Shown in pieces: positions 30,936 to 54,611 of a stretch of 57,992 bases of DNA (positions within the stretch are counted from its first letter, which is position 1; every line of letters starts with the position of its first letter). Source of the stretch: Calocera cornea HHB12733 (taxonomy: Eukaryota > Basidiomycota > Dacrymycetes > Dacrymycetales > Dacrymycetaceae); NCBI GenBank assembly GCA_001632435.1, contig KV424092.1, forward strand, positions 1 to 57,992, in the 5' to 3' direction. The notes beneath the pieces were generated by a model. It saw only the letters and a list, made by a program, of their open reading frames with translations, did not search any database and was not told the DNA's origin. A program made the translations under genes and the position numbers.

Positions 30936-30956
30936 GTGTACTGCCCAATACCGACC
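30936..30956 (+). repeat. left terminal inverted repeat of the large element
   Basis: GTGTACTGCCCAATACC followed by GACC. Matches the inverse of 54591-54611 with few mismatches. Directly followed by the decamer array. Confidence 0.6.
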
Positions 30957-31050
30957 GGTACTGACCGGTACTGACCGTTCCTGTCCGTACCTGTCCGGAT
31001 TTGTCAGTTCCTGTCCATACTTGTCTGGACCCGTCCGGACCGGTCCGGAC
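30951..31050 (+). repeat. left subterminal decamer array
   Basis: Ten consecutive 10-bp units in strict register, of the form CTGTCCGTAC / CTGACCGGTA / CTGTCCATAC / CCGTCCGGAC. Units vary at 2-4 positions. The same decamer family appears inverted at 54471-54530. The register suits repeated protein binding on one face of the helix, such as transposase sites; that role is inferred. Confidence 0.8.
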
Positions 31051-31509
31051 TTCTTTTCTTCCATCTGGAAGCATCTTGATCATCGGTTGCTTCGTCCTGT
31101 ACCGTCCCGTACCTACTTGTACCGACAGAGACCGGTCAGTCGGAAACAAATTGCGCCGTGGTAAGACCCCGTACTGTACGGTACCCACGGTATTCCGTGT
31201 TTTTATTTCTCATTCCCCCTCCCCGCAACGCGGAGTTGCCCCATATCTTTCCCTGCTTGTCTTCCGTCCACTGACTGATTTCGGGGTCTGTATCTCCCCC
31301 CATCAAAATACTGTTTTTGCCATGACGCCCGTGCCTCCTTCTCGCCCAATTACCTGGGTGACCCAGCCCGGCCTCCTTCGTTGGCCTCTCTCCTTTCCCC
31401 GTCTGTCTTGACCTCTTCCCCTCCCGTCGCTCACTTCCAGTCTATTCGACCCTCGTCTCTCCGTCCCTCCTTCTCCCTTTTCAAAACCATCACCCCTCCT
31501 ACCATCTCT

Positions 31510-34500
31510 ATGTCTCTTCCAACTACAACCACTACTGTTCGACACTGTGCGTCTCCCTGCCGTGACCCGCCCGGGCCCTCACCCGCCAATCCGACAACCT
31601 GTCTCTGCACTTGCTATGTCCTCCCCCCCGAACATCCCGGCTTCGTCCTTGTTAATGGATGCTATCCCCCTATGGACCCTTCTCTTCTACTCCTTCCCTG
31701 CCTCACCTGTACTCACCCCCTTTTACGTCACCTGCCTCCCCTCCCCATCCCGATGCCTCCCACCGCGTCCCAGACTGTCCAACCCTCTCCGGACCCCGGC
31801 CTTGATCGCATTCTGTTTTCCAACGCCATACCCCAAGACCCTGCCCTCGCTCAAAACCTCCTTAGCATTCTGGCTCCTACTGGCGCTGCTCCCAACACGG
31901 CCCAGGCAGCCGTTCGGCGCATTATTGCCTCCCACAACGAAAATCTCGCCGTGCCGCCCAGTGCGACTCCTTCGTCTTCTCTCCCTCTTTCTCCAGCACT
32001 TCACTCCTCCCTGTCGCCTTCGGATGCTCGCAACTACACCCTTGCATCCCGCGCTCACAGTATGCATCGCCATACCGCCCGTACTGCCGAAGACACTCAC
32101 ATGCGGCAACATCCCATTCGGTCTCGTCGGACCATACCGCCGCCATCCGTGGTTTCATCCGAATTCCTCGCATTGTTGCGTGTTGCCCCCGCTTATGTCT
32201 CCCTCAATCAGTCTGTACGTCTCCCATTCTCTCAAAACTCGTCTCCGGGCGCTCATTTCACTTTGTTCAACGCAGTCTGAACCAGTGCTTCATAAACGCT
32301 ACGTTACGGCTTATATGCCCTTTCTTGAAGCGTAACCCCATTCTTCGTGTTTTCTCTATTACTTGCTCACTTTCCTCCAGTAGTAACGCTGAAGGCCTTT
32401 TACGCGTCCTCACTTTGCCAGACCACACCAAACTACCCCAACTTATCTCAACCCTCGTTTCCCTCTTTCCTCACCTGCACATTCCACCGCCTATATCCCC
32501 AGCTCAATCATCCACTAGCACATCGCTTTCCACTACGTCGCTTCCCTTGGTACCTCTGTTACCAGACTCGTCCCACATGGTACCCGCGAGCGATCTTCAA
32601 CAACTCACCGTGGGCCTGCTCCTCAAGTCCCTGTCCAAATATGCTCGCGGCAAGCGCAAGGCCAATGCTTTGCCCTTGGTCATTGAATTCGGTGCGCACA
32701 CTCTCCTGCATACTTCAACCTTCCACCTGGCTGATGAGCTCCCTTATCCAGCGCCTACCCATTCCACTCTCACTCGACGTGACTCCGCATGCCCTGCTGG
32801 AGGCGATTGGACGTTTATGGATCACTTCAAAACTGATAGCAGAACGTCCAGTTTTCCTGTCTCCAAGGTCAGACTCCCCTTTTCAGGTTCTCGCTCATCT
32901 AATAGTTTTCATTAGAGGCCCATCAACTTGGCTCAGCTTCGGCAACTCACTGCTACTACCCTCCGTAGTCCCACCCAGCCACCCCTCAGCCCTTCCGGAT
33001 CCCTGCCTTCATCTTCTTTCCTTCTTCCCACTCCCCCTGTCCCTTCCCCTCCCGCTCGCAGTTTCGTTCCCCCCAGCGTCTATCCGTCCCACCCGCCAAA
33101 CCACCCGTCACCTCCCGCCTCTCTCCCCCATCTTCCACCCTCGACCTCTCATGATCCCCCACCTCCTCTCCAAGACATTAGCCATGGCTGGCCCCATGCT
33201 CGCCCGTCTGAATCCATCGTTCCACCCAGCTTCGCGTCTTCCCTCGCTCCTCCTCCTTTGTTCTTGCCCCCAACCTCTATCCCCTTTTCACAACCCCCTC
33301 CCCTTTCACCCGTCCACAACCCTCCAGCCCCCTCCTCACCTGTTCCTCACTCTCCTCCTCCTCCCAATCTTCCCGTTGCCTCCTCCCTATCCCAACATTT
33401 ATCCGCTCCTCCGTACCCCCCAGGACTGCCTCCGGACGTTCTATTCCCCCCCCGACTCTCCAATCCACCCTCCCAGTCCCATGCTTCTCCCCCTCCACAC
33501 CCACCACCTGTGCAATATCCACCCCAATCATCTTCCTTTCCACCAATCAACCCCTCCACCCTGTCGCATACCTGGCCCAGCATTACTTCTTCGTTTCTTC
33601 CTCTCACTTCACCCGCCCTACAATCCCCACCTCCGCCGGCCCCCCGTCCTCCATCGACGCATTCTTCGGCGCTCCTCAATTCCGATATCATCTCGTCATG
33701 GAAGACCTGCGTCACCCTCACGAATCCCGCCCCCTCCCCCCTTCAGTTAGACTATTATCCATCGTGTGATAACCTCCAGGACGCCGCCGTTGCACTCCGG
33801 GACTATTTACGCGATGCGGTTAAACCTGTCCTCGGACTCTTACCTGACGTCCGCCGGTCTATTCCTGCCTTGATGTCGGACATTCACTTCCCAATTATGG
33901 CGTGAGTCATTTCCTTCTACCCTTTCCATCTGCTTGAGCTCTCCATCAGCGGACGTGGCATCGGTAACGGTGCAAATCTCGAAGTCTGCCAAGCCACACT
34001 GGAAAGCTTCGCCCCTCTCCTACTTCCTCTCTCCTTTGGAGACTATCAAACCCTCCGGATCCGGTCTTTCGGTGCTGGTGCCCCTCTCGAAGCTCGTCAC
34101 TTGTCAGCGGAGGCTAAAGTGGATTTTGCTTCTCTCGGGCTCCTGCTCGTTGTTTTCCTTAAGCTGTTTCAGTTTGGACCCGCTTCCTTCTCCCCACTCA
34201 CCGTTTTGGCCGCCATTGCTGGCCACGACGCAATCAACCTACGCGCTCTACGCTCGTTTGCGCCTGAAATCGCGCGGTTTGTCGAACAATTTCATCTCCT
34301 CGGCCCTCAAGGTTGTCTGAAGCCATTCTCGCACAGTATGGTCTGTCGTCTGTCCGTACTGCCCTCGAACGCTATACTAACATTATCACTGTATCACAAA
34401 GGAACCTGACCATCCAGAGCATTTCCTGGCTTCAGTCGCCTACGGTGCGGGCAACATAGAGGTCAGTACAGTGCTTTTCACTCCGAGACCTTCTTGCTCA

Positions 34501-35340
34501 TTGTCCATACCTCTTCGGATGGGACAGGATGGTGATCTGGCTACCCCCCGTACGCCTGCCCTCCATCGCGCGTGGCTCTCGTCCATATTGCATCGTGTAT
34601 TGTTTCTCTCCGATCGGGATGACACTCACGCCTTGGATGCATTTGCGGCCGGCCTCAATGCACCATTTTTACCCCTTTCCTTGAAAGAAGCCGTCAGTAT
34701 GCGTCCATACCTGGTCAACCTGTGCTGACACTACCCTTTCAGTTTCTTCTCCAAGCGGACATATCGCCTCTGGCTTTTATTTCTTGTATGTGGTCCGATC
34801 GGCGTATTCGAGTACCTGCCGATGTCACAAGCCTCCTCCGCTGGGATGATCTGCCCGCCTATGAGCTGCCACTGTCCAAACAGGTCGCACTCCATTCTGC
34901 ATTTCATCGCTTTCTGCACGGCACTGGGGTTCCACGACGGGCTGCTTTACTTCAGGAGGCCGGGGTTTGGATACCACCTCCCTCGTACTCGGCAGCCGCT
35001 ACTGCCGATCCCTTGTTCAGAGCGGTCACATTCTATCGGGTTGCCACCGGTATACCGTATCTTCTCCCTTCTTCCTCCCGGCTCTACGTCAGTTTCTCTT
35101 CTCGCTCGCTCCCATGTGGACCCCCACTCATGGCTCCCTCAGATTAAGCTAGATATGAACCTCTCGCACTGCAAATTTCAAGCCTGCTCCAAACAAGTTT
35201 CAATTCCCCTCGAGCGCGGCACCTCAGCCTGGTACCATCAGACCAGTCCAGACTGGGAAGAGGATTACGAGGCGATGCTCTTCATTCAAATTATTGGCGA
35301 TTCTCGAATTGGGGACACGTTTTCTATGAACGTGCTTTAA
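31510..35340 (+). CDS. HECT-like E3 ubiquitin ligase (putative), exon chain partly resolved
   Basis: First exon 31510-32214 (Cys/Pro-rich, CASPCRDPPG..CLCTCYVLPP). The 32.28-32.93-kb exons are not resolved (two frames compete). A very Pro/Ser-rich exon starts near 32917 and ends at 33901. Then 33950 to about 34335, about 34419-34461, 34526-34692, 34742-35087 and 35146-35340, with repeated GTCAGT-type donors. The C-terminal ~400 residues have the layout of a divergent HECT domain: GRGIGNGANLEV, FASLGLLLVVFLKLFQFGP, ALDAFAAGLNAPFLPLSL, FYRVATGIPYLLP, and a candidate catalytic cysteine in FQACSKQVSIPL, ending FSMNVL. HECT enzymes form a thioester on that Cys and ubiquitinate targets. Homology is inferred from pattern order, so this is tentative. 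Confidence 0.45.
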
Positions 35341-54033: not shown

Positions 54034-54470
54034 GCAGGTGAGTGAGTTGGAGGGACAACGGGTTGAGGGGATGTGAGACTAAGAACAGGGTGTTGGGAGG
54101 GGGGAGGGGGGAGAGAAAAGGGGTGAACACGGTAAGGAACAAAAAAAGAGCCTGTGGAAGGGGAGGCAGGTGCAGGTGGTGGGACCCAATGGCAACGGCG
54201 CGATAAAGCGGCATTGTTTGAACAGGCGGGGCGAAGGCGGTGGTAGGGGACCCCAAAACTAGTCCAAAGAGAGAAAGGAGAAAAGAAAAGGACGTGGAAC
54301 CGTAGGAGAACGGGGAAAAAAATCAAGAACAGATTTGGAAAAGGGAACGTGATAGGGTTGCATCTGGGGGCCAAGACGGACAGTCTAGAACAGGATCAGA
54401 CGGTACCAGACAGTATGGAGCCCACGTACAGAGAAGCAACAGACCCTGACCGTTGGTATGCACGGGTACG

Positions 54471-54530
54471 GGACAGGTCCAGACAGGTCCAGACAGGTCC
54501 AGACAGGTCCAGACAGGTACTGACAGGTAC
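54471..54530 (-). repeat. right subterminal decamer array
   Basis: Six 10-bp units in register (GGACAGGTCC, then three AGACAGGTCC, AGACAGGTAC, TGACAGGTAC). Read on the minus strand this is GTACCTGTCT / GGACCTGTCT, the same decamer family and orientation relative to the end as at 30951-31050. Confidence 0.85.
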
Positions 54531-54590
54531 TGAGGATACATGACGGTACGGATCGGTACCGGACAGTACGTGTTGGTACCGGACAGGACA

Positions 54591-54611
54591 GGTGAGTATT
54601 GGTCAGTATAC
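54591..54611 (-). repeat. right terminal inverted repeat of the large element
   Basis: Inverse of the left repeat: GGTGAGTATTGGTCAGTA at 54591-54608, extendable by TAC. Confidence 0.6.

What the first reader, a model, noticed from the sequence alone, without database searches (positions are those of the whole stretch)
30936..54611. A ~23.7-kb integrase-bearing element with a multi-gene cargo
Seen: imperfect 18-21-bp inverted repeats at both edges, matching subterminal decamer arrays in inverse orientation, and inside them an integrase-like gene plus MYND, HNH-like, two DUF6532-type and a HECT-like gene. Known: integrase-core DDE enzymes mobilise DNA. Inference: these form one large transposon that carries protein-modification and chromatin-type genes. 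I know no described fungal element with this exact gene set.
Basis: partly seen in the sequence, partly recalled or inferred. Interest (0 to 1): 0.88.

Follow-up and report, generated by a model that had tools for sequence, protein, structure and literature searches.

The report
Giant multi-gene fungal DNA transposon
A 23.8-kb piece of a jelly fungus's genome is one mobile element that carries its own integrase and at least six other genes, and sister elements with the same kind of ends sit elsewhere in that genome, which is unusual because cut-and-paste transposons seldom keep so many genes together.

Summary
The finding is real but needed correcting. The window is contig C179 of a 32.1-Mb assembly that I identify as Calocera cornea HHB12733 (Dacrymycetes). 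Five complete elements of 20.9-23.8 kb (C179, C92, C153, C27, C32) each have a left-type and a right-type end and their own perfect 6-bp duplication; so do three elements of 558-568 bp (94.5-97.5% identical). Seven genes (A, D, E, F, G, integrase, MYND) are in all four copies read in full, in varying order, with low dN/dS. Termini, duplication length and the rva_4 integrase fit the known IS3EU/GingerRoot superfamily. Fungal IS3EU with other cargo is published; ten paper searches showed none with this gene set, and Repbase could not be consulted. The HECT call failed every test made, and the 'chromatin/protein-modification' reading is unproven. Verdict: a new giant multi-gene variant of a known transposon kind. 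Present activity and the functions of the extra genes are inferred.

The parts
30871..30876 (.). target-site duplication, left copy (CCCGAG)
   Evidence: identical to the six bases after the right end
30877..30902 (+). 26-bp terminal inverted repeat, left type (TAACGCAG...GACAAAACC)
   Evidence: same block at the left ends of C92, C153, C32, C27, C104
31510..35340 (+). gene A, about 1,157 aa in 8 exons (model), proline-rich middle; no known domain, HECT not supported
   Evidence: dN/dS 0.11-0.15 in 5 of 6 pairs, dS infinite in the sixth
36027..36904 (-). gene B, small, exon limits uncertain; conserved stretch
   Evidence: tblastx with C153 and C32, not C92; no Pfam hit for an overlapping ORF
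37886..39523 (-). gene C, 470-aa model with HNH_2 domain
   Evidence: PF13391 E 2.4e-10; found in the window and C92 only, of four copies read
40920..41237 (-). gene D, 105 aa, Pro/Tyr-rich, ends in GGGGC; no known domain
   Evidence: 5 genome hits, each inside one of the five complete elements
42652..44140 (+). gene E, DUF6532 protein (5' exons uncertain)
   Evidence: PF20149 E 7.3e-23
45028..46872 (+). gene F, DUF6532 protein; conserved part 45901-46872, 5' exons uncertain
   Evidence: PF20149 E 9.5e-30
47706..49584 (-). gene G, no known domain; my program split it in two in the window, C153 and C32, but it is one model in C92 and one annotated protein (P0121) in C27
50286..52084 (+). gene H, integrase, 541 aa, exons 50286-50453, 50505-51126, 51191-51431, 51490-52084; catalytic D260, D317, E352
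52505..54033 (-). gene I, 422-aa model with an N-terminal MYND finger
   Evidence: PF01753 E 1.2e-7
54462..54608 (-). right subterminal decamer array
54635..54660 (-). 26-bp terminal inverted repeat, right type (TATCGCAG...GACAAAACC)
54661..54666 (.). target-site duplication, right copy (CCCGAG)

Best explanation
It is one giant DNA transposon of the IS3EU/GingerRoot type, moved by its own DDE integrase. Shown: exact ends (30877-54660), a 6-bp target-site duplication, sister elements with the same end types at other sites, a spliced integrase frame without stops and with its DDE residues, and further genes that recur with the integrase and change little at amino-acid level. Inferred: the integrase binds the decamer arrays and the bipartite TA...TA ends, excises the 24-kb unit and joins it to a target with a 6-bp stagger. 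Also inferred: genes A, D, G, I and the DUF6532 pair are a module that serves the element (transposition cofactors, control of expression or escape from host silencing) rather than casual passengers; the HNH gene, in two of four copies read, is a looser addition.
For: Perfect 6-bp duplications, all different, at 8 of 8 elements read at both ends: five large and three short. Terminus pattern: 22 matches in the genome, 0 for the reversed control; wider pattern 42 and 0. Collinear copy on C92 with unrelated flanks. Genes A, D, E, F, G, H and I in 4 of 4 copies read in full. Gene G: 9 of 9 genome hits on contigs that carry a family terminus. Integrase triad conserved in fungi and animals. dN/dS 0.05-0.27 in the 30 of 40 pairwise gene comparisons with a finite dS. 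Short elements 94.5-97.5% identical at three sites, so related ends moved fairly recently. TA..TA ends and 6-bp duplications are those given for IS3EU (PMC10045372, passages).
Against: No empty site was seen and no other strain could be searched. The large copies are old and unlike each other (pS 0.59-0.86), so present movement of the 24-kb unit is not shown. Gene order differs between copies. In C92 my integrase model splits and the hit there holds a TAG, not settled. Decamers face inwards cleanly only in the window copy; in C153 the right end has 8 in the other orientation and 4 inward, in C32 6 and 7. No role of any extra gene is tested, and no tree with IS3EU transposases could be made.
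Confidence: 0.75

Rival explanations
1. An IS3EU transposon that passively carries caught genes: only the integrase matters for movement and the rest is ordinary cargo.
For: Gene order varies and genes B and C are not in all copies. Published fungal IS3EU carries caught genes such as TET/JBP (PMC12730594, passages). Gene A has three distant hits (C16, C136, C245) with no integrase or terminus match listed nearby.
Against: Seven genes are in 4 of 4 copies read, although the copies are near saturation at synonymous sites; genes A and G found no relatives outside Calocera, so no host source is seen.
Confidence: 0.18
2. A virus-like or self-synthesising (Polinton-like) element.
For: Integrase, size of about 20 kb, inverted repeats, and a 6-bp duplication as given for Polinton (PMC10045372, passages).
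Against: No DNA polymerase, packaging ATPase or capsid match among the proteins scanned (not every ORF was scanned); scans of IMG/VR with the integrase and the gene A alignments found no relative (the gene G alignment could not be used).
Confidence: 0.05
3. Not a transposon: a duplicated chromosomal segment or gene cluster with chance repeats at its edges.
For: Copies are divergent and rearranged inside.
Against: Homology of the two copies stops at the same terminal repeats, five large copies each have a different perfect 6-bp duplication, and short elements share the same kind of ends.
Confidence: 0.01

Closest known systems
Fungal IS3EU DNA transposons (Kojima 2025, PMC12730594; abstract, passages, section 3.1 and figure legends seen)
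   Same: 6-bp duplications; TA..TA ends (there TAYGG..CCRTA, here TAAC at left ends and TATC or TATG at right ends); extra genes beside the transposase; basidiomycete hosts
   Different: There TET/JBP between transposase and alpha-kinase; here neither was found among the proteins scanned, but A, D, G, MYND, two DUF6532 and sometimes HNH. Sizes of the published elements were not in the parts I saw. TIRs there are over 30 bp, here a 26-bp block plus a second block and decamer arrays.
IS3EU/GingerRoot superfamily in general (PMC10045372, passages; the GingerRoot paper itself is not held)
   Same: integrase-like DDE transposase; TA..TA ends; usually 6-bp duplications
   Different: 21-24-kb multi-gene unit. 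Whether Repbase already holds this family could not be checked.
Starship giant transposons (PMC12134995, search listing; PMC13066641, passages)
   Same: large multi-gene mobile units in fungi, reported also in a basidiomycete (Tremella fuciformis, 42-606 kb)
   Different: moved by a tyrosine-recombinase captain; here a DDE integrase with inverted repeats and 6-bp duplication
Polinton/Maverick and Ginger1/2 (PMC10045372, passages)
   Same: integrase-like DDE enzyme; Polinton also 6-bp duplications
   Different: no polymerase or virion gene found among the proteins scanned; Ginger1 duplicates 4 bp, Ginger2 4 or 5 bp

Membership tests
IS3EU/GingerRoot | element ends TA..TA | tested here: met
   8 of 8 elements read at both ends
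IS3EU/GingerRoot | 6-bp target-site duplication | tested here: met
   8 of 8, all perfect; C104, C94, C14 and C52 not readable
IS3EU/GingerRoot | integrase-like DDE transposase without an HHCC zinc-binding N-terminus | tested here: met
   rva_4 match and triad; no zinc-binding integrase domain among Pfam matches at E up to 1, only weak helix-turn-helix matches below cut-off; no dedicated HHCC test was made
IS3EU/GingerRoot | transposase groups with IS3EU in a tree | not testable with these tools
   Repbase transposases not at hand
Fungal TET+ IS3EU (PMC12730594) | TET/JBP and alpha-kinase genes | tested here: not met
   no such Pfam match among the proteins scanned
Zisupton/KDZ | 8-bp duplication | tested here: not met
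   6 bp
Starship | tyrosine-recombinase captain | tested here: not met
   DDE integrase; no tyrosine-recombinase match among the proteins scanned
Polinton/Maverick | protein-primed polymerase, packaging ATPase, capsid genes | tested here: not met
   no match among the proteins scanned; not every ORF was scanned
HECT ubiquitin ligase (gene A) | HECT domain PF00632 | tested here: not met
   a faint resemblance of the C-terminus is my recollection only

The most novel reading that the evidence does not exclude
Giant DDE-integrase elements are a regular class in Dacrymycetes. Several lineages (this one and, from inward-facing terminus matches around integrases, C14 22040-55775 and C52 125476-155077, 33.7 and 29.6 kb) carry stable sets of non-transposase genes that work for the element itself: a counterpart of the Starships built on a different enzyme.
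Probability: 0.45. Interest if true: 0.8.

Novelty: new variant of a known kind. Interest (0 to 1): 0.66.

Why it matters
The giant multi-gene mobile elements of fungi that my paper searches showed are Starships, which use a tyrosine recombinase. A 21-24-kb unit on an IS3EU-type integrase, with at least six other genes kept under purifying selection and several sister elements in one genome, would be a second enzyme system for moving tens of kilobases, and makes testable why a cut-and-paste transposon keeps so many extra genes.

Tried and rejected
Boundary: I first read a 4-bp duplication with ends (G/C)TA; dropped because the outer base varied between copies, and 6 bp with TA..TA ends fits all eight elements. 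HECT reading of gene A: dropped. The fimbrial-subunit hits (E 1.2e-6 for a trimeric fusion, 4.6-4.9 for each of its units) were set aside as chance. The structure models of gene G (mean pLDDT 43.6) and of the gene A C-terminus (40.4) were too poor for a fold search, so none was run. Viral relatives: none with the integrase and gene A alignments. Empty site: none.

Limits. My gene program chooses models by conservation; it also returned many short and antisense models, which I set aside, and can step over stops by proposing introns, so 5' exons of E and F are doubtful. The dN/dS figures leave out poorly aligned windows, lack the C92 integrase, and lean low. Terminus matches on C3, C4, C7, C21, C39 and C278 and two pairs on C76 and C154 were not followed.

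Papers. Searches. Seen of PMC12730594: abstract and outline, passages, section 3.1, figure legends; of PMC10045372, PMC6431247, PMC13066641, PMC8955403 and PMC12411881: passages only; of PMC12134995: search listing only; the GingerRoot paper is not held.
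Full report
Source. The window is contig C179 of a 302-contig, 32.1-Mb assembly. Gene G of the element matches CALCODRAFT_481516, _481712 and _512062, on contigs of 246,673, 232,762 and 76,235 bases, the lengths of C27, C29 and C153. I therefore take the genome to be Calocera cornea HHB12733 (Dacrymycetes).

Ends. Comparing the four ends gave an inverted repeat outside the decamer arrays. A pattern for it has 22 matches in the genome and none for the reversed control. The outermost base varies between copies and belongs to the duplication: with TA...TA ends the six flanking bases are identical on both sides in 8 of 8 elements read at both ends. 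Large: C179 30877-54660 CCCGAG; C92 90291-113344 CCCCAG; C153 7022-28240 GTGACG; C32 97518-119019 CACAAC; C27 63327-84188 CCAGTC (from the flanks). Short: C17 GTGTTC, C19 GAAGAC, C29 CACTGG. The window element is 23,784 bp. A wider pattern gives 42 matches, 0 in the control, and places a C104 element at 85253-106267 and a C94 left end at 71696; their duplications could not be read.

Two end types. Each of the five large elements has one left-type end (TAAC...) and one right-type end (TATC or TATG...). Behind the 26-bp repeat lies a second short block, then the array. The motif NGTACYGWCC occurs 4-11 times per 400-bp end in 8 of 8 ends of the four copies read, always above the maximum (2-3) of 500 shuffles (means 0.17-0.22). 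Orientation is clean in the window copy (7 inward and 1 outward at the left, 6 and 1 at the right) but not everywhere: 4 inward and 8 outward at the C153 right end, 7 and 6 at the C32 right end, 11 and 1 at the C92 right end. Interior counts are 9-27 per strand, where about 11 would be expected from the shuffle means; C32 has an extra internal array.

Genes. tblastx between the four copies read in full (window, C92, C153, C32; C27 could not be fetched whole) and a conservation-guided gene model give genes A to I in window order. A, D, E, F, G, H and I are in 4 of 4; B is in the window, C153 and C32; C in the window and C92. Order and orientation differ: D and E are inverted in C92; in C32 D and E lie between the integrase and the MYND gene; in C153 D, E, G and H are inverted and reordered, and the hit coordinates suggest the C153 arrangement for C27 as far as tested. 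H is the integrase: rva_4, with an open spliced frame of 541 codons in the window copy. In an 11-row alignment D260 and E352 are invariant and D317 is nearly so, replaced in one row; 34 residues lie between D317 and E352. I has a MYND finger, E and F are DUF6532 proteins, C has an HNH_2 domain. A and G match no Pfam family, and their annotated relatives P0125 and P0121 no NCBIfam family, nor does C. Ten further ORFs match nothing at E up to 0.1. In C92 the integrase model splits and the genome hit holds a TAG; whether that is an intron, as in the window copy, was not settled.

Linkage. Gene G has 9 genome hits, on C179, C92, C27, C32, C29, C153, C196, C104 and C94; 9 of 9 contigs carry a family terminus. 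Gene A has 14 hits: nine at 55-100% identity on C179, C92, C196, C153, C32, C27, C239, C104 and C94, all with a terminus, and five at 31-34% on C16, C292, C136, C245 and C28. C292 and C28 have an integrase hit within 3 kb; C16, C136 and C245 have neither in the lists. The MYND gene has 13 match rows on ten contigs; eight of these have an integrase hit and the other two (C26, C29) a terminus. Gene D has 5 hits, one in each complete element. Gene F has 13 match rows; those on C8 and at C29:12200 are weak and away from the elements. The integrase search itself was capped at 25 candidates, and the tool calls such counts lower bounds.

Selection and age. In 40 pairwise gene comparisons pS is 0.59-0.86; dS is infinite in 10, and dN/dS in the other 30 is 0.05-0.27. 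For the integrase pN is 0.144-0.148 against pS 0.745-0.796 in three pairs, C92 not included. The large copies are thus old lineages with clean duplications. The three short elements, 94.5-97.5% identical at three sites, show fairly recent movement of related ends.

Distribution. The integrase finds 180 relatives among 7,995 candidates, 120 listed; the best is 40% identical over 74% of the query. Those named in the list are mostly mushrooms, with some animals and Rhizophagus. Gene G finds four proteins and the end of gene A one, all Calocera; the C. viscosa ones lie on a contig of 145,816 bases, presumably the same. The searches need shared exact words, so absence elsewhere is weak evidence.

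Known kinds. IS3EU is described with TA..TA termini and usually 6-bp duplications, and GingerRoot with 6-bp duplications and mostly TA..TA (PMC10045372, passages). IS3EU in rusts has 6-bp duplications, TIRs over 30 bp and ends TAYGG..CCRTA; TET+ IS3EU families have TET/JBP between transposase and alpha-kinase (PMC12730594). The present element meets the general features and differs in gene set and end anatomy. The 8-bp duplication of Zisupton and the tyrosine recombinase of Starships do not fit, and no Polinton polymerase or virion gene was seen.

Mechanism. Shown: ends, duplications, sister elements, an integrase with catalytic residues, gene linkage and constraint. Inferred: the integrase binds the decamers and end blocks, excises the unit and inserts it with a 6-bp stagger; A, D, E, F, G and I serve the element, most simply as transposition cofactors or as means to be expressed and to avoid silencing. 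Their biochemistry is unknown and the structure predictions were too poor to help.

Verdict. A giant multi-gene DNA transposon, a new variant of a known kind.

Noticed in passing
G000:C14:22040-55775 and G000:C52:125476-155077: Inward-facing terminus matches (2 mismatches each) 33.7 and 29.6 kb apart, each pair enclosing an integrase hit of 32-40% identity (C14:34354, C52:137552) and no gene A or G hit; possible further giant elements of other lineages. Duplications not read.
   Followed up: partly
G000:C76:118549-119119 and G000:C154:46978-47548: Inward-facing terminus matches 571 bp apart, probably more short non-autonomous elements.
   Followed up: no
L062 (G000:C219, 66-220): Two right-type ends 130 bp apart in tandem near a contig start, with the same outer flank; C194 has one at the same place. 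Tandem copy or assembly artefact.
   Followed up: no
G000:C29:226972-227548: A 558-bp short element with its own duplication lies about 18 bp from the right-type end of a large element that runs towards the contig end.
   Followed up: partly
window 24509-27337 (+): A 942-aa frame outside the element with a STAND NTPase match (nSTAND1, E 2e-6) and TPR repeats.
   Followed up: no
window 29534-30901 (-): A host frame without Pfam family whose first ATG (about 30736, counted) lies some 140 bp from the element's left end, so the insertion may be in its promoter.
   Followed up: no
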